Shown: positions 2,764-35,327 of the stretch, in pieces
How positions within the stretch are numbered: position 1 is the stretch's first letter
Layout: each line of letters begins with the position of its first letter
From: Candidatus Omnitrophota bacterium
GTDB taxonomy: Bacteria > Ratteibacteria > UBA8468 > B48-G9 > JAFGKM01
Assembly (NCBI GenBank): GCA_016928555.1
Contig: JAFGKM010000044.1
Span: forward strand, 1 to 36,889
Length of the DNA: 36,889 nt
Reading direction: 5' to 3'
Notes under the pieces: model-generated
Databases searched by the model: none
Told to the model about the DNA's origin: nothing
Seen by the model: the letters and a program-made list of their open reading frames with translations, nothing else
Made by a program: the position numbers and the translations under genes

Positions 2764-2940
2764 GTCATTGCGAGCCGGAAAAGATTGCCCCCCCACCTAT
2801 CTTCCTCCCCCTCGAGGGGAGAGGATAAAAGGAGGGGGTGAATATTCAGCCGCAATCTCAACCTTATCTTGAAATTGCAGAGCCTGTTCCGAGTCTGTCA
2901 TTGAGATTGCTTCGTCATTTGAAGCATTCCTCGCAATGAC
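2764..2940. repeat. Composite of nested dispersed repeats
   Basis: This non-coding stretch is bounded by GTCATTGCGAG (2764-2774) and its exact inverse CTCGCAATGAC (2930-2940). Inside is a perfect palindrome CCCCTCGAGGGG (2808-2819) followed by GAGGATAAAAGGAGGGGGTG, related to the repeat at 31901-31936, and an internal GTCATTGAGATTGC fragment. It appears to be a repeat inserted in a repeat. It separates the membrane-protein gene (stop at 2960) from the exported-protein gene (start 2711). Confidence 0.6.
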
Positions 2941-11799: not shown

Positions 11800-11838
11800 A
11801 TCCCTTTCCGGAGAAGAGAAAGTGGAGGATAAGGGATT
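11800..11838. repeat. Second copy of the tRNA-Ala 3' end (39-bp direct repeat, copy A)
   Basis: Identical over 39 bp to 11944-11982, which contains the last part of tRNA-Ala (acceptor 3' strand and T-arm edge) plus 23 bp downstream. The copy starts ATCCCTT and ends AAGGGATT, so it also carries short inverted ends. It starts 2 bp after the MATE stop. The 105 bp between the copies hold no gene. It resembles an att-site duplication or the scar of a deleted tandem tRNA. Confidence 0.8.
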
Positions 11839-11943: not shown

Positions 11944-11982
11944 ATCCCTTTCCGGAGAAGAGAAAGTGGAGGATAAGGGATT
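11944..11982. repeat. 39-bp direct repeat, copy B, overlapping the tRNA-Ala 3' end
   Basis: Partner of 11800-11838, offset exactly 144 bp. Bases 11967-11982 are inside the tRNA gene (minus strand); the remainder is immediate 3' flank. Confidence 0.8.
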
Positions 11983-12039
11983 CGAACCCTTGACACCCAG
12001 ACTGCCAGCCTGGTGCTCTCCCAGCTGAGCTAATCCCCC
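11967..12039 (-). tRNA. tRNA-Ala (GGC)
   Basis: 73-nt cloverleaf on the minus strand: acceptor GGGGGAT/ATCCTCC with the G3-U70 wobble that identifies alanine tRNA, D-arm GCTC/GAGC, anticodon stem CCAGG/TCTGG with loop CTGGCAG (anticodon GGC), T-arm AAGGG-TTCGAAT-CCCTT, discriminator A. CCA is not encoded. The best promoter lies about 150 bp upstream, with a repeat element between. Confidence 0.95.
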
Positions 12040-12045
12040 GTATAT

Positions 12046-12164
12046 CGGATTAATTTCATCCGAAGAGCTTCGTTGGCATCGTCGCCAGCTTCCTCGGCGT
12101 ATTTTTTACATACGCCTCCTTGCCTCGCTCCTTGCCGCCTTGCTCTCCGGCGAACTGAATCCGC
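12046..12164. repeat. tRNA-linked stem-loop element, tRNA-Ala copy
   Basis: 119 bp. Ends are inverted (CGGATT 12046-12051, AATCCG 12158-12163). The left end also forms CGGAT-7 nt-ATCCG. The central hairpin is GGCGTAT (12096-12102)/ATACGCC (12110-12116). Right half TCCTTGCCGCCTTGCTCT is shared almost base for base with copies at 34029-34134 and 34165-34278. It lies inside the leader of the tRNA-Ala precursor, in the opposite orientation to the tRNA. Confidence 0.75.
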
Positions 12165-12192
12165 TATATTTTTTCAGTATATAAGCACATTT

Positions 12193-12258: not shown

Positions 12259-12311
12259 AAGGGAAACAAAGCCCCTCCTTGAAAAAGAGTAACAAGTGAT
12301 TAGTGAATTTA

Positions 12312-12360
12312 TAGCGGTGCGATTCATCGCACGGTTATAGTGGCATAAATGCCACCGCTA
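12312..12360. repeat. Composite palindromic repeat, three-way-junction form
   Basis: Outer arms TAGCGGTG (12312-12319) and CACCGCTA (12353-12360) are exact inverses. Inside are two perfect hairpins: GTGCGAT/ATCGCAC (12317-12332) and GTGGCAT/ATGCCAC (12340-12355). The first half recurs at 15749-15770 and 32969-32991. The unit is in the 5' leader of the isomerase-like gene. Confidence 0.75.
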
Positions 12361-13847: not shown

Positions 13848-15752
13848 ATGGTCATAAGAGCCAAAAAATGTCTTTTCCTTTTTTTTCTGTTCTGCGGTTT
13901 TATTTTCGCGGAAGAAATTCCCGTATATTACAGTTCAGACAATTTCAGTGTAAAGTTTAACAAAGCGGGAGAATCCGAGGAAATAATTCTCAACGGCAAT
14001 GTAAAAATCTCCTTCAGCGATACAGCCATAACCTGTGAAAAGGCCGTGTTTAACAGAATCACCGGGGATATTTCGGCTGACGGCCCTGTTTATGTCGAAA
14101 CCCCTGAAGCAACTTTTACCGCAGATTACATCACGCATAACCTGAATAGCGAAACAGGGATTCTGCTGAACTCCTCTTTTAAAGCCCCTCCTGTGTACGG
14201 CAAAGCCGACAAGGTGGAAAAGAGAGAGGGAATTATAATCCTTAAAAACGGATATATAACGGCCTGCGACCTTGAAAAGCCGCACTACAGGATTTCAGCC
14301 GAGAATATGGAATACGTACCCGGCGACTACCTGCGCGCTGAAAAGCTCCGCCTTGTATTCGGAGAGAAATATACTCTTCTGTACCTTCCCGGATTTACGA
14401 TTGACGCACGGACGAAAGAGCCGCCTTTCAGCGTTATGCCGGGCTACAGCACGAGAGTGGGAAGGACTGTTGATGCTTTTTTCACCCACAGGGCGGGCGA
14501 TGAGACTGACGCTGTCGTTAAGGAGAGGATTTCTCTGGGAGGAGAAGGGATAGGCGCAGGCATGAAGGTGTCTTCCCGTAAGAACAGATACAGGCTTGAA
14601 GGATTTCTCTATAAGAGATGGGATGATGTCGGGCTTGAACCCGGACTAGTTGCGGAGTTCAATAAAAATTACAGTTCCCGTTCCGGCGAGGGAAATTTTA
14701 TTCTTAACTGGAGACTCATGGACAGCCGGGACCTTTTTTACGATTTTTTTAATGACGACTATGACGCAAAATCAAAGACCTACAATTACCTGTCCGCAAC
14801 ACATAATTTTAAGGCAGGGATTTTCAACCTGAATTTCCGGCATTCTGCGGACGAGAATTTTCTCAATGTTGAAAAAATCCCCGAAGTAAGGTTCCGCACG
14901 CCATTTTTGCGCATGGGGAATTCGCCTCTCTTTGTGGAGAATGATTTCCGCCTGACAAATTTTTATAAAGAGGGCGAAGAATGCTTGAGGGCGGCGGACA
15001 GGGTTAAGGTTTCAGTATCTTCCCTGACAGGGCTTTTTTCCGTTTCTCCTTACATATCTGCGGCGGGCATCAATTATTCCGGTTCAATGGAGGACAGGTT
15101 CAATTTTATGAGCGAAGCGGGAGTGAAGGTATCCGCGGCAATGAAAAAACAGCACGAAGGATATACGGGGTATTTCTCGCCTTCCCTCTCGGTTTTTTAC
15201 CGCGGGCTTGATTATGAAGCGGGAGAGATTGAGTATTTTGACGGTCTTGAGAGGTTAAACGGCGGAAGGTTTGTGAATCTCGGTTTAGACTGGTTTTTTC
15301 ACGGAAAGACGGAATACCTCGGGAGGGTGTCCGTAGAAAATGTTTATGACATTGACAGGGGTGCGTTTGACGGAAACCTTCTGAAATACGATGCCAGAAT
15401 AAACCCGCGCCTTCATATAGAAGGGCAGAACGAATTCAGCTTTTCCGAAGGAGAATACAGATTCGGGGTTAACGACCTGGTTGCGGATTTCGGAAAATAC
15501 AGTTATTCAATCGGAAACAGGTATGACGGAGAAAGCGGCATTTCAGGCATTGAAGGAAGGTTTGGGCACGCACTGAATGAAAACTGGCGCTACGGCATAG
15601 GAGCGCAGTATGACATTGAATCAGGGGGTTTTTCCAGAGCAAAGCTTGATGTATGGAGAAAACTTCACTGCTGGGAGATGCACTTCAGGATATCGGCGGA
15701 TGAAGACGATTTTTCTTTCTATCTCGTGGCGTATCCGATTTTTCTGATGTAG
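13848..15752 (+). CDS. lptD: LPS-assembly protein LptD-like outer-membrane protein
   Basis: 634 residues with a Sec signal (CLFLFFLFCGFIFA-EE). Residues about 25-170 form an OstA/LptA-type beta-jellyroll (SVKFNKAGESEEIILNGNVKISF, AITCEKAVFNR, ITACDLEKPHYRISAENMEYVPGDYLRAEKLRL). The remainder is a beta-barrel with alternating aromatic strands and a hydrophobic last strand ending VAYPIFLM. It would receive LPS from the Lpt bridge and place it in the outer leaflet; it is shorter than E. coli LptD (784 aa) but usual for distant phyla. It shows that this organism has an LPS-type outer membrane. The TAG stop lies within the repeat at 15749-15770. Confidence 0.82.
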   Translation: MVIRAKKCLFLFFLFCGFIFAEEIPVYYSSDNFSVKFNKAGESEEIILNGNVKISFSDTAITCEKAVFNRITGDISADGPVYVETPEATFTADYITHNLNSETGILLNSSFKAPPVYGKADKVEKREGIIILKNGYITACDLEKPHYRISAENMEYVPGDYLRAEKLRLVFGEKYTLLYLPGFTIDARTKEPPFSVMPGYSTRVGRTVDAFFTHRAGDETDAVVKERISLGGEGIGAGMKVSSRKNRYRLEGFLYKRWDDVGLEPGLVAEFNKNYSSRSGEGNFILNWRLMDSRDLFYDFFNDDYDAKSKTYNYLSATHNFKAGIFNLNFRHSADENFLNVEKIPEVRFRTPFLRMGNSPLFVENDFRLTNFYKEGEECLRAADRVKVSVSSLTGLFSVSPYISAAGINYSGSMEDRFNFMSEAGVKVSAAMKKQHEGYTGYFSPSLSVFYRGLDYEAGEIEYFDGLERLNGGRFVNLGLDWFFHGKTEYLGRVSVENVYDIDRGAFDGNLLKYDARINPRLHIEGQNEFSFSEGEYRFGVNDLVADFGKYSYSIGNRYDGESGISGIEGRFGHALNENWRYGIGAQYDIESGGFSRAKLDVWRKLHCWEMHFRISADEDDFSFYLVAYPIFLM

Positions 15753-15770
15753 CGGTGCAATTTATTGCAC
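15749..15770. repeat. Palindromic repeat overlapping the lptD stop codon
   Basis: GTAGCGGTGCAAT-TT-ATTGCAC. Same unit as 12312 and 32969, but the fourth stem pair is A-T here instead of G-C, a compensatory change that keeps the hairpin. Bases 15750-15752 are the lptD stop. Confidence 0.65.
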
Positions 15771-18613: not shown

Positions 18614-18625
18614 CTACCGTTCTTC

Positions 18626-18678
18626 TTCATCCACGTAGCGGCTTTGCCTGCGTTGTCAGCATCGTGCGGCGTACTATA
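18626..18678. repeat. Half copy of the tRNA-linked element behind tRNA-Lys
   Basis: Left half only: CCTGCGTTGTCAG and TGCGGCGTAC correspond to the left arm and first half of the central hairpin of the copies at 34029 and 34165. The matching TACGCC arm is missing; the sequence passes into the transposase remnant. Confidence 0.55.
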
Positions 18679-18702
18679 GGGGTATCGGAAAAGGAGAAGG
18701 CA

Positions 18703-18891
18703 ATGGAGAAGGCCGCCCATGTATTGGAAGAAACGGAAGAAGAGCAGGCAGTCAGTCCCGGCAGTGCCAGGAAACTCATCAGGAATGTAAGGAAAGCGAC
18801 CCGCCGTGAATTCACCGCAGAAGACAAAATCAGGATAGTATTGGAAGGTTTCCGCAAAGAAATCCCCATCAGCGAATTATGCAGGCAGGAA
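18703..18891 (+). pseudogene. Truncated transposase OrfA (IS3-like) remnant
   Basis: 63 codons starting MEKAAHVLEETEEE, with a good AAAGGAGA site, then KATRREFTAEDKIRIVLEGF and IPISELCRQE, the start of the helix-turn-helix of IS3/IS911-type OrfA proteins. After residue 63 (18891) the similarity stops; the frame runs on to 19005 with unrelated sequence that is the antisense of the neighbouring gene. No second ORF or terminal repeats are visible. The break is 3 bp from the stop codon of the convergent surface-protein gene, so an IS insertion and deletion probably formed this junction. Confidence 0.72.
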
Positions 18892-18893
18892 TT

Positions 18894-20156
18894 CTATTTC
18901 TTTTTTTTTCTGAGACAAGGCAGGATACCGGCAGATACGGCAATTGCCATAACCGGCAACAGTATTCCCTTGAGTACCGCAAAAGCAAAGAATATCAGTG
19001 GATAGAGAAGGATTCTCGCTGCCGCCCGCAGAAACGGCCGGGACTTGATATGTTTTGCTCCGATTGGCCCTTTTCTGTAATACCACCTGACAAAAGACCT
19101 GCCGGCGGTATTCGTCAACAGGTAATTATCTCTGAACTGCCTCAATATGCATATGTGCCGTTCTTGATAAGAGCCGAACGCCGCGGTTGCTATGAAGCAA
19201 CCTCCTCCCCCACCGCCGCCTCCATCGCCGTCAGACGGCGGAGAATAGCTTAATCCGGAAGGATCTACAATTACGCCGTTTTCTGTTCCGTCTGCATCCC
19301 CATCTCCTCCGTCAAGCAGAGTTATGTCTATTCTGGTATAACCTGGCGCTTCAGGAGTATTGTACGTAAACACAGAGTTTGCATACTCATACCAGCCTTT
19401 TACCGCGTCATGTTTATACCAGTAACCGTCTTCACAATCTCCCGGCACGTAAAAAGTAACAACCACCGTTGTCTTTCCCTCTGCAAGGCCGTCTATCCTG
19501 ATTGAAAACATTCCATAAATAAAATTGTCAGGTCTGCCTTCGTCTGGCAAATCATCAGGATTAATGGATTTTACGGTTATGTTCTCTTCGCACGCAAAGG
19601 TTATGGTTTCATTATTTGTGGAATCGCTCAAAACGGCGCCTTTAACGTAAGGGTCAATTATGTCTTCGGGAGGAGCTACCTGCTGTGCATCATGCTCTTC
19701 ATCCGAGTCAGCGGTGACAAAGGAAGAATACTCGCTCCATTCAGACCAGAGAGGTCCATACGTATCTTCATACCGTACTCTCCATATATACCTGGCAGCC
19801 GGTTCAAGCGTACCCCATGAGACATGGATACCGGTGAACGAAAGGTTTGGATTGAGGGCAAGTTGAACAAGGTTTACCGTTTGGTGCAGGATTGTCTCCG
19901 TTCCCGTTTCATCAAAGATTTGCCACTCGGTAAGAATCTGGGTGTCATCCTGGTCACTGTCTGAAAACGGCGAAGCAGAAAGTGTCGGGTCCAGGTTGTC
20001 AAGGGTGCCATCATATGAAGGTTCAACACACAAAGGTTGGTCCGGCGGAGTGTCGTAATGCAAAGAAATCTCTATATGCTGGGATTGGTCAGGAAATGCT
20101 CTGCATGAAAACATGAGCATCATGACCAGAGTCTGCAACAGAAACAATTTTTTCAT
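18894..20156 (-). CDS. CFI-box-CTERM protein with choice-of-anchor-U-like domain
   Basis: 420 residues. A Sec signal (MKKLFLLQTLVMMLMF) is followed by a fibronectin-like segment (IFDETGTETILHQTV to RYIWRVRYEDTYGPLWSEWSEYSSF). Next comes a domain matching choice-of-anchor U (SINPDDLPDEGRPDNFIYGMFS, GYWYKHDAVKGWYEY, ITLLDGGDGDADGTENGVI), then a run of eight glycines and the CFI box CFIATAAFGS (320-329). The tail carries RSFVRWYYRKGP, a transmembrane segment and a basic LRKKKK end, a sorting-type C-terminus. The product is predicted to be exported and retained by its tail. The ATG at 20156 lies 4 bp after the upstream stop. The basic tail abuts a transposase remnant, so its end may be altered. 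Confidence 0.85.
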   Translation of the reverse strand: MKKLFLLQTLVMMLMFSCRAFPDQSQHIEISLHYDTPPDQPLCVEPSYDGTLDNLDPTLSASPFSDSDQDDTQILTEWQIFDETGTETILHQTVNLVQLALNPNLSFTGIHVSWGTLEPAARYIWRVRYEDTYGPLWSEWSEYSSFVTADSDEEHDAQQVAPPEDIIDPYVKGAVLSDSTNNETITFACEENITVKSINPDDLPDEGRPDNFIYGMFSIRIDGLAEGKTTVVVTFYVPGDCEDGYWYKHDAVKGWYEYANSVFTYNTPEAPGYTRIDITLLDGGDGDADGTENGVIVDPSGLSYSPPSDGDGGGGGGGGCFIATAAFGSYQERHICILRQFRDNYLLTNTAGRSFVRWYYRKGPIGAKHIKSRPFLRAAARILLYPLIFFAFAVLKGILLPVMAIAVSAGILPCLRKKKK

Positions 20157-31167: not shown

Positions 31168-31931
31168 TGAAAGGCGTGGTGCTTGCCGGCGGCCTAGGGA
31201 CACGGCTTTATCCCCTTACCAAAGTTACCAACAAACACTTGCTCCCCGTATATAAAAAACCTATGATTTATTATCCCATACAGACTCTCGTGGATGCGGG
31301 GATAAAGGATATCCTTATCGTGACGGGCGGCAATTCGGCGGGCGATTTCCTTAAGCTTCTCGGAAACGGGAAGGAATTCGGGCTCAAGCATCTTAACTAC
31401 ACCTATCAGGAAGGGGAAGGGGGCATTGCCGAGGCGCTTTCTCTGGCTCAGCATTTTGCCGGCAGCGGCAAGTTTGTAGTTATACTGGGGGATAATATCA
31501 TTGAGGGAAGCATAAAAGACGAGGTTAAGATATTTGCGAAGCAGGAAGAAGGAGCAAGGATACTTCTTAAAGAGGTTAATAACCCCCAGAGGTTCGGCGT
31601 GGCTGAAATAAAAGGGGACAGGATAATCAGGATTATAGAAAAGCCGAAAGCGCCTCCATCAAACCTTGCCGTCACAGGGATATACATGTACGACAGTTAT
31701 GCCTTTGAAATAATAAAGACGCTCAAGCCGTCAGGCAGGGGAGAGCTTGAGATAACAGACGTCAATAACGAATATATACGGAAAGGCACGCTTACTTTCG
31801 GCACGCTTAAGGGTTGGTGGACGGATGCAGGGACATTTGATTCGCTTATAAGGGCGGGCAACCTGGTTTACAGTGGCCAAAAGGATATCCCTCAGATGTT
31901 CCTCTCCCTTGAGGGGAGAGGATTAAGGTGA
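31167..31931 (+). CDS. rmlA: Glucose-1-phosphate thymidylyltransferase
   Basis: Makes dTDP-glucose from dTTP and glucose-1-phosphate, first step of the rhamnose pathway. 254 residues with LAGGLGTRLYPLTK (6-19), KHLLPVYKKPMIYYPI (23-38), ILGDNI, RFGVAEI and WWTDAGTFDSL. The natural end appears to be near YSGQKDIPQMF; the last residues, LSLEGRGLR, and the stop are encoded by a dispersed palindrome (31901-31936). Coupled to rmlC by a one-base overlap; rmlB follows after 15 bp. Confidence 0.95.
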   Translation: MKGVVLAGGLGTRLYPLTKVTNKHLLPVYKKPMIYYPIQTLVDAGIKDILIVTGGNSAGDFLKLLGNGKEFGLKHLNYTYQEGEGGIAEALSLAQHFAGSGKFVVILGDNIIEGSIKDEVKIFAKQEEGARILLKEVNNPQRFGVAEIKGDRIIRIIEKPKAPPSNLAVTGIYMYDSYAFEIIKTLKPSGRGELEITDVNNEYIRKGTLTFGTLKGWWTDAGTFDSLIRAGNLVYSGQKDIPQMFLSLEGRGLR

Positions 31932-31936
31932 GGGTG
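31901..31936. repeat. Dispersed palindrome forming the 3' end of rmlA
   Basis: CCTCTCCC (31901-31908) and GGGAGAGG (31914-31921) with a 5-nt loop, followed by ATTAAGGTGAGGGTG. Same family as 2804-2840. It encodes the C-terminal residues and stop of RmlA and reaches towards the rmlB ribosome site. Confidence 0.65.
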
Positions 31937-31946
31937 AAGGAAATAA

Positions 31947-32942: not shown

Positions 32943-32968
32943 CGTTGAAATTCTATTCAGCGATTCTG

Positions 32969-32991
32969 TAGCGGTGCGATTCATCGCACGG
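32969..32991. repeat. Palindromic repeat between rmlB and rmlD
   Basis: TAGCGGTGCGAT-TC-ATCGCACGG; stem GTGCGAT (32974-32980)/ATCGCAC (32983-32989). Identical in the stem to 12317-12332. Confidence 0.7.
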
Positions 32992-33038: not shown

Positions 33039-33896
33039 ATGAAGATTCTTATTACAGGCGGGAAAGGCATGGTCGGCGGTCTGCTGGCGGAATTTCTTAA
33101 GGACGGCAATACCGTTCATGCTCCCGGCAGGGAAGAGCTGGATATTACCGACAGGGAGAAGGCCGTAAAGGCCATAACCGATTTCAATCCCGATATTCTT
33201 TTCCACTGTGCGGCGTTCACAGACGTGGACGGGTGCGAGAATGAAAGGAAAAGAGCGTACCTTGCGAATGCTTTGGGCACCCAGCATGTTGCGGAGGGAT
33301 GTGCGGAAGCAGGCAGTAAAATGGTGTATTTGAGCACGGATTTCGTTTTTGACGGAAAGAAGGGGAAGCCGTACTCCGAAACGGACAATCCTTCTCCTCA
33401 AAGCGTGTATGCGGAAACAAAATTTCTGGGAGAGTACTATGTTTCGCATCTCCTGAACAGGTTTGCCATAGTTAGGATATCAAGGGTATTCGGGCGCAGC
33501 GGGAGGAATTTTTCATCGGTTTTGCCGCGGCTTATGAAAGAAGGGAAAAAGATTATTCTTACCGATAATCTGGTCAATTCCCCCACGTATGCGGACGACC
33601 TTGTAAAAGCGATGTCATTCCTTGTTGAAAAAGAATTCTGCGGGATAGTAAACGTCTGCAACAGGGGAGAGTGTTCATGGTATCAATACGGCATGGCGGT
33701 AAAAGATATGATGGGGATTGAAAACGCTGAACTTGTGCCGGTAAAGTTTGAAGGATTCAAAAAAGGTCAGGCTGAACGGCCTCGCTATTCCGTGTTGAGC
33801 ACCGAACTTCTTGAGACTCTCGGTTTTTCCATGCCTGGATGGCAGGATTCCCTCCGCCGCTACCTCGTGTCCGGACAATATATATCTTCTTGTTGA
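33039..33896 (+). CDS. rmlD: dTDP-4-dehydrorhamnose reductase
   Basis: Last step of dTDP-L-rhamnose synthesis. 285-residue extended SDR: ITGGKGMVGG (5-14), FHCAAFTDVDGCE (55-67), YLSTDFVFDG (97-106), active-site Y124 and K128 (VYAETK), RISRVFGRSGRNF. All as expected for RmlD. AAAGGTGT precedes the ATG. With rmlC, A and B it completes the pathway; the rhamnose probably goes to LPS O-chains or another surface glycan, though no glycosyltransferase is in view. The stop codon overlaps the -35 box of the tRNA-Glu promoter. Confidence 0.94.
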   Translation: MKILITGGKGMVGGLLAEFLKDGNTVHAPGREELDITDREKAVKAITDFNPDILFHCAAFTDVDGCENERKRAYLANALGTQHVAEGCAEAGSKMVYLSTDFVFDGKKGKPYSETDNPSPQSVYAETKFLGEYYVSHLLNRFAIVRISRVFGRSGRNFSSVLPRLMKEGKKIILTDNLVNSPTYADDLVKAMSFLVEKEFCGIVNVCNRGECSWYQYGMAVKDMMGIENAELVPVKFEGFKKGQAERPRYSVLSTELLETLGFSMPGWQDSLRRYLVSGQYISSC

Positions 33897-33922
33897 CACG
33901 CAATATAGCAAAACAGTATAAT
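33893..33922 (+). promoter_or_regulatory. Consensus promoter of tRNA-Glu
   Basis: TTGACA (33893-33898, overlapping the rmlD stop), 18-nt spacer, TATAAT (33917-33922). Confidence 0.75.
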
Positions 33923-33942
33923 AAACCTTCGTTTGATTTGAT

Positions 33943-34017
33943 GCCCCCATAGACTAGTGGTTAGGTCACCACTCTTTCAAGGTGGGCGGGCCGGTTCGAA
34001 TCCGGCTGGGGGCGCCA
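33943..34017 (+). tRNA. tRNA-Glu (TTC), CCA encoded
   Basis: Cloverleaf: acceptor GCCCCCA/TGGGGGC, D-arm GAC/GTC, anticodon stem CCACT/GGTGG with loop CTTTCAA (anticodon TTC), T-arm GCCGG-TTCGAAT-CCGGC, discriminator G34014, CCA at 34015-34017. It is the only tRNA here with encoded CCA. Its 3' end is repeated three more times downstream. Confidence 0.95.
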
Positions 34018-34028
34018 CTCCATCTTCA

Positions 34029-34134
34029 GCCGCATATCTGCGTTAACTTCGTCATCGGCTTTGTGCGGCGTACATTGCGTACGCCTCCGCGCCTCTTCCT
34101 TGTTGCCTTGCTCTGCGGCAGAATCCAGAGCGGC
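34029..34134. repeat. tRNA-linked stem-loop element, first copy after tRNA-Glu
   Basis: 106 bp with terminal inverted repeats GCCGC (34029-34033)/GCGGC (34130-34134), central hairpin GGCGTAC (34067-34073)/GTACGCC (34079-34085), and the shared right-arm motif CCTTGTTGCCTTGCTCT. Flanked by tRNA-Glu 3'-end copies at 34003-34017 and 34149-34161. Confidence 0.75.
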
Positions 34135-34148
34135 GCTATTCCCCGATG

Positions 34149-34161
34149 CGGCTGGGGGCGC
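34149..34161 (+). repeat. tRNA-Glu 3' end, second copy
   Basis: CGGCTGGGGGCGC, identical to 34003-34015. Preceded by TTCCCC, which could pair with the GGGG run as an acceptor-like hairpin. Confidence 0.75.
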
Positions 34162-34164
34162 TTT

Positions 34165-34278
34165 CGGATTATCTTTATCCGGATAACTTCGTTGTCTGCG
34201 TCGTCAGTTTCCTCGGCGTATGAGTATACGCCTCGTTACTTCCTCCTTGACGCCTTGTTCTACGGCAAATCTAATCTG
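34165..34278. repeat. tRNA-linked stem-loop element, second copy after tRNA-Glu
   Basis: 114 bp with ends CGGATTA (34165-34171)/TAATCTG (34272-34278), left hairpin CGGAT-7 nt-ATCCG, central hairpin GGCGTAT (34215-34221)/ATACGCC (34226-34232), right arm CTCCTTGACGCCTTGTTCT. Closest to the tRNA-Ala copy. Confidence 0.75.
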
Positions 34279-34286
34279 AAAGTACC

Positions 34287-34308
34287 GCCCCTATGGCTGG
34301 GGGCGCCA
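34287..34308 (+). repeat. tRNA-Glu 3' end, third copy; acceptor-stem-like hairpin with CCA
   Basis: GCCCC (34287-34291) can pair with GGGGC (34300-34304) around an 8-nt loop, followed by G and CCA (34306-34308). GGCTGGGGGCGCCAC (34295-34309) is identical to the tRNA end at 34004-34018. It looks like a tRNA-Glu gene with its middle removed. Confidence 0.6.
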
Positions 34309-34329
34309 CGGCGCAGGCCTTTATGGGTT

Positions 34330-34345
34330 ATCCGGCTGGGGGCGC
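34330..34345 (+). repeat. tRNA-Glu 3' end, fourth copy
   Basis: ATCCGGCTGGGGGCGC, 16 bp identical to 34000-34015. Only about 20 bp separate it from the third copy, and no stem-loop element lies between. The remaining bases to 34382 hold nothing recognised. Confidence 0.7.
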
Positions 34346-34382
34346 AAAAAAACAGTGGTTATGAATAGTGAAAAGCAGGATA

Positions 34383-35327
34383 CTACTTATTGAGATTGGA
34401 GCGGCGGTGGGCAAGCGCTCTTTTGAAATAATCGTCGAGCAGTTCTATTTCAAATTCCTTCACCATATCATATATGCATTTATCTTCCGTCTCGCAGGAA
34501 AGGAGCACCGAACCGAGAAGTCCCGGGTCATAAATCTTTACTCCTGTTCCATATTTCTTTTTCATTGCTTCAAACTTCCGCCAGTTATAATCTATATGAG
34601 CTACACAGCAGTCAAGGTTTACGGTTGCGGTGACAAACCTCGTGTAATGCGTTGTGTATGCTATGATACTGCCAATCGGAGAGATGATTGTGCCCTCTTC
34701 TTTCGGGTATCCGATTGCCCCGACGAAATGGACGCGGCAGGAGTATGCCCAGTATGCCTGCATAAGTCCGCCGTGGTACATTGAAGAAAATAGAATAATG
34801 TCGGGACGGGCCGCGGCATACTTAAGCCGCAGTTCGTCAAAATTAAGGTCAAAGCATATTGCGCACGCAACCGTTCCGAAGTCGCATTTTATTAAAGGCG
34901 CATCCGTTCCGTATTCGGTTCCGTACACGGTGTTTTCTTCAATCACCAGATGGTTTTTGTTGTATGCCCCGGCAATCCCGCCTTTGCGGTCTATGATTAT
35001 GGTGGAGTTGTGCCATTTTCCGTTTTTATCTTCCAGCACCGCGGAATAGGCGATATAGCAGTTGTTATTCCTGGCTGTTTCCCTGAAATGGTCAAGTATC
35101 TGATTCCCTCTTGTTTTATAATAAATATTTTTTTTCTCTTCATACAGGTTTTCGGGGCGGTCGCATGCCTCAGGCAGGACAATAAGGTCGGGTTTATCGG
35201 GAAGAACGGCCTGTATGCGGGCATCCAGGTGTTCTTTGACCTTTTCCACCATGATTTGATAATCAAGCCCGCGTTCAATGCGGCACGGGGAAGTACTTAT
35301 GTTGCTTATTTTTACGTATCTTGCCAT
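34383..35327 (-). CDS. Carbon-nitrogen hydrolase (nitrilase superfamily)
   Basis: 314-residue alpha-beta-beta-alpha enzyme with the full Glu-Lys-Cys triad: E53 (VLPEACD), K124 (YNKNHL) and C158 (AICFDLNF). A further acidic residue of the family is expected in the EEN segment after K124. Family members hydrolyse amides, carbamoyl compounds or nitriles; the substrate cannot be told, and the C-terminal ~90 residues look divergent. Cytoplasmic, no signal. No strong ribosome site before the ATG. It follows the LysM gene on the same strand after an 84-bp gap containing a hairpin repeat. Confidence 0.88.
   Translation of the reverse strand: MARYVKISNISTSPCRIERGLDYQIMVEKVKEHLDARIQAVLPDKPDLIVLPEACDRPENLYEEKKNIYYKTRGNQILDHFRETARNNNCYIAYSAVLEDKNGKWHNSTIIIDRKGGIAGAYNKNHLVIEENTVYGTEYGTDAPLIKCDFGTVACAICFDLNFDELRLKYAAARPDIILFSSMYHGGLMQAYWAYSCRVHFVGAIGYPKEEGTIISPIGSIIAYTTHYTRFVTATVNLDCCVAHIDYNWRKFEAMKKKYGTGVKIYDPGLLGSVLLSCETEDKCIYDMVKEFEIELLDDYFKRALAHRRSNLNK

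What the first reader, a model, noticed from the sequence alone, without database searches (positions are those of the whole stretch)
34018..34345. A ~105-120 bp stem-loop element recurs at tRNA genes, with co-varying arms
Two full copies (34029-34134, 34165-34278) follow tRNA-Glu, one (12046-12164) lies next to tRNA-Ala, and half a copy (18626-18678) follows tRNA-Lys. The copies differ in sequence, but the terminal inverted repeats change together (GCCGC/GCGGC, CGGATTA/TAATCTG, CGGATT/AATCCG), as does the last pair of the central hairpin (GGCGTAC/GTACGCC versus GGCGTAT/ATACGCC). That pattern indicates selection for a folded DNA or RNA. Three of four tRNAs in the window carry it, and I see no full copy away from a tRNA. 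I recognise no named family.
Basis: partly seen in the sequence, partly recalled or inferred. Interest (0 to 1): 0.78.

Follow-up and report, generated by a model that had tools for sequence, protein, structure and literature searches.

The report
Mobile DNA hairpins at gene ends
A roughly 130-150 base DNA hairpin has copied itself to about 30 places in this bacterium and to many more in distant bacteria, landing unusually often exactly on stop codons or right behind tRNA genes; it looks like a new family of a known kind of small mobile DNA, not a tRNA-specific RNA.

Summary
The element is real and its arms co-vary strongly, but the tRNA link is mostly an accident of this window. A covariance model from seven copies finds 29 full copies in the genome; 25 of 30 copies lie more than 600 bp from any tRNA (4 of 45 tRNA genes carry one: mild enrichment). 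The same family occurs patchily in the class and, with the same ~75-nt core but different arm ends, in Syntrophales and Geobacteraceae (up to 89 copies per genome). It behaves as a non-autonomous mobile element (MITE-like): inverted terminal repeats, a 3-bp TNA target duplication (p<=0.0003 in two phyla), and orthologous sites in relatives that lack the DNA. The first unusual point: in about a quarter of copies the left TNA is exactly the stop codon of a same-strand upstream gene, and several copies begin exactly at tRNA 3' ends. The second: about 10% of loci repeat the gene tail plus part of the element with a ~144-bp period; the four GGCTGGGGGCG repeats behind tRNA-Glu fit this. Mispairs do not favour G-U on the top strand, so covariation is not proof of an RNA. 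No autonomous partner was found and Rfam has no match. A 2009 Geobacter paper listed what is probably the same family as 'predicted short RNA elements'.

The parts
33943..34017 (+). tRNA-Glu(ttc); its 3' tail GGCTGGGGGCG (34004-34014) is repeated at 34150, 34295 and 34334
   Evidence: ARAGORN; tail positions; consensus promoter TTGACA-18-TATAAT at 33893-33922
34018..34149 (+). Hairpin element copy 1, starting directly after the tRNA CCA
   Evidence: model hit 34010-34142; single long hairpin; absent from orthologous tRNA-Glu site of G001
34162..34294 (+). Hairpin element copy 2
   Evidence: model hit 34159-34288; absent in G001
34295..34344 (+). Two further repeats of the tRNA-Glu tail (34295-34305, 34334-34344) with no element between
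12040..12173 (+). Hairpin element copy on the 5' side of tRNA-Ala (tRNA at 11966-12039, minus strand), in the presumed tRNA leader
   Evidence: model hit; promoter 12220-12193 minus strand
18615..18674 (+). Left half of an element copy starting at the 3' end of tRNA-Lys(ttt)
   Evidence: 73% identity over 51 nt to copy 1; same start position as a full copy behind tRNA-Lys in G005
18675..18894 (+). Transposase-like remnant (OrfA-like helix-turn-helix) that replaces the right half of the tRNA-Lys copy
   Evidence: weak Pfam HTH_Tnp_1 match, E 0.0047, below cut-off

Best explanation
A family of non-autonomous, MITE-like mobile elements whose whole length (about 130-150 bp) folds into one imperfect hairpin. 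SHOWN: many dispersed copies; terminal inverted repeats; a TNA duplication at the ends; orthologous sites without the insert; strong arm covariation; an excess of copies whose left end coincides with a stop codon or tRNA 3' end, in sense orientation. INFERRED: a transposase supplied in trans cuts the ends and inserts at TNA. Because TAA and TGA are TNA, insertion on a stop codon leaves a stop at the left end and spares the gene, and insertion just after a tRNA spares the tRNA; survival there, perhaps with some targeting of gene ends, gives the observed positions. The hairpin is kept by selection on a folded single strand needed for mobility and/or by arm-to-arm template correction. Replication slippage at the hairpin repeats the gene tail plus part of the element with a ~144-bp period; this best explains the repeated tRNA-Glu tails.
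For: 29 genomic copies and patchy presence in 11 of 61 genomes searched. TNA duplication: 7 of 9 usable G025 copies have identical 3-mers against 2.1 expected, p 0.0003; 13 of 27 Desulfobacterota copies against 4.1, none of 10,000 shuffles. Sites without the insert: tRNA-Glu in G001, about 15 bp where the own genome has about 370; C45:67987 lacks it in G001, G003, G005 and G006, where the two genes abut or nearly abut; C34:20180 lacks it in G001. Left TNA equals a same-strand stop codon in 29 of 117 copies against 9 loosely matched right ends. Covariation. Tail-plus-element direct repeats of 11 bp or more in 8 of 77 copies against 2 of 600 mismatched flank pairs, period mostly 141-147. 24-bp palindromes flanked by TNA in G033 and G001 look like TIR-only remnants.
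Against: No IS-length element with these ends was found in 35 genomes of the class. Many older own-genome copies have degraded ends without a clear TNA duplication. The stop-codon excess could be survivorship, and the ORF calls behind it were mechanical. The covariation could reflect a functional RNA. Two of the four relatives' alignments (loci B and D) are too diverged to place the insertion exactly.
Confidence: 0.8

Rival explanations
1. A structured RNA in 3' untranslated regions and behind tRNAs (processing, stability or attenuation), spread as a mobile element but now kept for its RNA function in sense orientation.
For: Sense bias at stop codons, 29 left against 9 right; near-perfect covariation; core conserved between this class and Desulfobacterota while the arm ends change; copies lie within presumed transcripts of tRNA-Glu and tRNA-Ala.
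Against: On the sense strand G-T mispairs are fewer than A-C (44 against 136 cells; column sign test p 0.06 in one alignment, 0.03 in another), the opposite of what a sense RNA should tolerate. At tRNA-Ala the element is transcribed antisense. Patchy presence, lacking in most close relatives. No terminator-like hairpin plus T-run in the 541-bp tRNA-Glu region scanned. No Rfam match to the element.
Confidence: 0.15
2. A tRNA-specific element or tRNA-borne integration site.
For: 4 of 45 own tRNA genes carry a copy within 13 bp; tRNA-Lys carries one at the same position in two genera; tRNA-Gln carries one directly after its CCA in a Syntrophaceae genome.
Against: 25 of 30 own copies are >600 bp from any tRNA or on contigs without one; among the relatives' loci scanned for tRNAs, only the G005 tRNA-Lys and Syntrophaceae tRNA-Gln loci have a tRNA abutting the copy.
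Confidence: 0.03
3. REP-type palindromes mobilised by a RAYT (Y1 transposase).
For: Interspersed extragenic palindromes; Y1_Tnp genes are present in G000, G005, G029 and G033.
Against: No Y1_Tnp match in the carriers G001, G020 and G025 (G025 is only 65% complete); length of 130-150 bp, TIRs and a TNA duplication are unlike 20-40 bp REPs.
Confidence: 0.05

Closest known systems
[quoted passage not shown] Aklujkar 2009, PMC2700814, Additional file 4)
   Same: Intergenic repeat with central palindrome GRCGTA-N7-TACGCC, the same central hairpin and loop length as the Geomobilimonas copy here (GACGTACCATCTGTACGCC); similar sequences were reported in other Geobacter and Desulfotalea
   Different: Described from nucleotide alignment as a short RNA; the passages read do not mention TSD, empty sites, stop-codon docking or other phyla. 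The supplementary alignment could not be opened, so identity is likely but unproven.
YPAL/RU-2 of Yersinia (as reviewed in PMC2229807)
   Same: About 168-bp palindromic mobile repeat, intergenic, may affect upstream transcripts, targets next to dyad symmetry, filled and empty sites known
   Different: TSD of 3-26 bp, internal inverted repeats and no TA ends; here a fixed TNA duplication and terminal repeats
ERIC/RU-1, RUP, Correia/NEMIS and Nezha MITEs
   Same: Short non-coding palindromic elements with TIRs and short target duplications, no transposase of their own
   Different: Those in PMC2229807 are mostly described with TA ends; here TNA, a different core, an excess at stop codons, and tail-plus-element repeats
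E. coli tyrT tandem repeats / rtT RNA (from memory)
   Same: tRNA 3' tail repeated downstream with a fractional number of repeat units
   Different: No Rfam hit; here the unit contains a mobile hairpin, and protein genes show the same pattern

Membership tests
MITE (miniature inverted-repeat element) | Short non-coding multicopy interspersed element | tested here: met
   about 130-150 bp, 29 full copies in the own genome, 6-89 in six Desulfobacterota genomes
MITE (miniature inverted-repeat element) | Terminal inverted repeats | tested here: met
   TACYRAWTTG.../mirror ends in G025; TACC...GGTA and TTCC...GGAA ends in Syntrophales
MITE (miniature inverted-repeat element) | Target-site duplication | tested here: met
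   TNA, p 0.0003 and <0.0001
MITE (miniature inverted-repeat element) | Sites without the insert in relatives | tested here: met
   tRNA-Glu, C45:67987, C34:20180
MITE (miniature inverted-repeat element) | Autonomous partner with the same ends | tested here: inconclusive
   no IS-length pair of ends in 35 genomes of the class; not searched in Desulfobacterota
REP/RAYT | RAYT (Y1 transposase) in carriers | tested here: not met
   no match in carriers G001, G020, G025
Rfam families (all 4227) | Match at gathering score | tested here: not met
   only the tRNAs match; permissive search gives nothing on the element
Intrinsic terminator | Hairpin followed by a T-run | tested here: not met
   none in 33880-34420
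Geobacter Gmet_R1005 family | Central palindrome GRCGTA-N7-TACGCC in an intergenic repeat | tested here: met
   Geomobilimonas copy L072 against PMC2700814 legend
Geobacter Gmet_R1005 family | Full-length alignment with the 24 published copies | not testable with these tools
Integron attC sites | Paired core sites and an integron integrase | not tested
   considered because of the folded bottom strand; no dedicated search was made

The most novel reading that the evidence does not exclude
A transposition system that recognises the 3' ends of genes (stop codons and tRNA tails) in one orientation, using a folded bottom strand whose ~75-nt core is conserved across phyla while its ends are exchanged to suit different transposases.
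Probability: 0.2. Interest if true: 0.75.

Novelty: new variant of a known kind. Interest (0 to 1): 0.48.

Why it matters
If gene-end docking is targeted rather than only survivorship, it would be a bacterial mobile element with a built-in way of inserting without harm, at the stop codon or just behind the tRNA. The family also offers many phylogenetically spread filled and empty sites to test why bacterial hairpin repeats keep perfect stems (selection or template correction), and it shows a concrete route by which tRNA tails become tandemly repeated.

Tried and rejected
Tail repeats as long TSDs: rejected for most loci, because the repeat also contains the element's own 5' part and the copies with clean ends have a 3-bp TNA duplication. 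RAYT as partner: rejected on distribution. IS-length partner with the same ends in the class: none (an earlier pattern was mis-specified and is ignored). Known Rfam RNA: none. Intrinsic terminator: none. Viral carriage: no exact core match in viral contigs. Plasmid carriage: no match to the Geomobilimonas copy. A degenerate element between the repeated tRNA-Ala tails: no model hit.

Full report
CHECK OF THE OBSERVATION. Two full copies follow tRNA-Glu (model hits 34010-34142 and 34159-34288), one lies at 12040-12173 beside tRNA-Ala, and a left half (18615-18674) follows tRNA-Lys. The tRNA-Ala gene is on the minus strand, so that copy is on its 5' side, between a perfect TTGACA-16-TATAAT promoter and the tRNA. 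The half copy stops where a transposase-like remnant begins (weak HTH_Tnp_1 match, E 0.0047, below cut-off). Neither Rfam search shows a match to the element.

GENOME-WIDE. A covariance model from seven own copies (A1; single long hairpin, 34 pairs, 19 with double-sided change) finds 29 full copies in 1.95 Mb; the 22 not used in training score E 1e-16 to 4e-25. 45 tRNA genes were found. Counting the half copy, 5 of 30 copies lie within 150 bp of a tRNA, at four tRNA genes (Glu twice, Ala, Lys-ttt, Lys-ctt); the other 25 are more than 600 bp away or on contigs without a tRNA. Simple nulls give p about 0.0006-0.015 for four or more tRNA loci, post hoc.

FOLD. In an independent MAFFT alignment of the 29 copies, RNAalifold predicts one long hairpin; 24 of 29 pairs have double-sided changes. 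In a model-fitted alignment of 84 copies from the class, 30 of 34 pairs do, with 380 double-changed cells against 118 +/- 8.7 in shuffles and 62-92 when slid. Mispairs on the top strand are A-C more often than G-T (136 against 44 cells, two fixed T-G columns left out); by column the imbalance is borderline (sign test p 0.06 in A4, 0.03 in A6, 0.45 in the Desulfobacterota alignment). A sense-strand RNA should show the reverse, so the covariation is better read as maintenance of a folded DNA strand, arm-to-arm correction, or a bottom-strand RNA; cells are not independent, so this is a hint only.

RELATIVES. 11 of 61 genomes searched carry it, all from the same genus, family, order or class, patchily. 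A DNA pattern of the core finds it in Syntrophales, Smithella, Geobacteraceae and Geomobilimonas; six such genomes hold 6-89 copies. The Desulfobacterota copies share the ~75-nt core but have other outer arms. No exact core match occurs in viral contigs.

MOBILITY. In G025 eleven near-identical copies show the ends: TACCGAATTG... to ...AATTAGTA flanked by TNA. Among usable copies the flanking 3-mers are identical in 7 of 9 (2.1 expected by shuffling, p 0.0003) in G025 and 13 of 27 (4.1 expected, 0 of 10,000 shuffles) in Desulfobacterota. Orthologous sites lack the insert: tRNA-Glu in G001; C45:67987, where in G003 and G006 the flanking genes abut directly and in G001 and G005 nearly so; and C34:20180 in G001. 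In the C45 case the own gene has lost its native final codons and stops inside the element. Loci B and D also appear to lack it in relatives but are too diverged to place the junction. TIR-only 24-bp palindromes with TNA flanks occur in G033 and G001. No IS-length partner was found in the class, and a RAYT does not track the element.

GENE ENDS. With mechanical ORF calls, the left TNA is exactly the stop codon of a same-strand upstream gene in 18 of 77 class copies and 11 of 40 Desulfobacterota copies; right ends match a convergent stop, by a looser criterion, in 8 and 1. In the window, 25 CDS stops are TNA against 237 intergenic TNA sites, so roughly 5% would be expected per orientation if insertion were even. 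tRNA cases follow the same rule: the tRNA-Lys copies in G000 and G005 start at the same base, and a tRNA-Gln copy in a Syntrophaceae genome starts directly after CCA. Whether this is targeting or survival cannot be decided here.

TAIL REPEATS. In 8 of 77 copies the gene tail, usually with the element's 5' part, is repeated after the element (direct repeats of 11 bp or more; 2 of 600 mismatched flank pairs reach that), with a period mostly of 141-147 bp. The tRNA-Glu tail GGCTGGGGGCG at 34004, 34150, 34295 and 34334 fits this, although its two elements have diverged while the tails stayed identical, which slippage alone does not explain.

LITERATURE. [quoted passage not shown] metallireducens with central palindrome GRCGTAGCGCTGCTACGCC, also in other Geobacter and Desulfotalea; the spacing matches the Geomobilimonas copy here. 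The supplement could not be opened, so this is a strong lead, not a proof. YPAL and the other small mobile repeats reviewed in PMC2229807 are the closest analogues in behaviour.

Noticed in passing
window 11800-11838 and 11944-11982: An exact 39-bp repeat holds the 3' end of tRNA-Ala plus 22 bp downstream, at a spacing of 144 bp, the same period as the element's tail repeats, but no element is detected between the two.
   Followed up: partly
window 12310-12332, 15748-15770, 32967-32989: A 23-bp interspersed palindromic repeat, TGTAGCGGTGCGATTCATCGCAC.
   Followed up: no
window 2792-2829 and 31889-31926: A second interspersed palindromic repeat (TTCCTCTCCCTTGAGGGGAGAGGAT); the 31899-31938 copy matches many places in relative G006 at 90-97%.
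   Followed up: no
L013:1673-1794 (G000 contig C45): Three exact 41-bp tandem copies of CTCTAAATCCACCCTAACCCTCCTTTACGAAAGTAGGGGAC directly after a partly duplicated element.
   Followed up: no
L138:2755-2778, L139:2421-2444, L140:2029-2052: 24-bp palindromes TACTAATTTGACGTCAAATTAGTA flanked by TNA: possible minimal elements made of two terminal repeats only.
   Followed up: partly
L065:5244-5374 and L069:801-931: A related hairpin family with different ends (TGTTCAAAAACGCCCATATG.../...TTTTTGAACA) in Desulfobacterota, matched weakly by the model.
   Followed up: no
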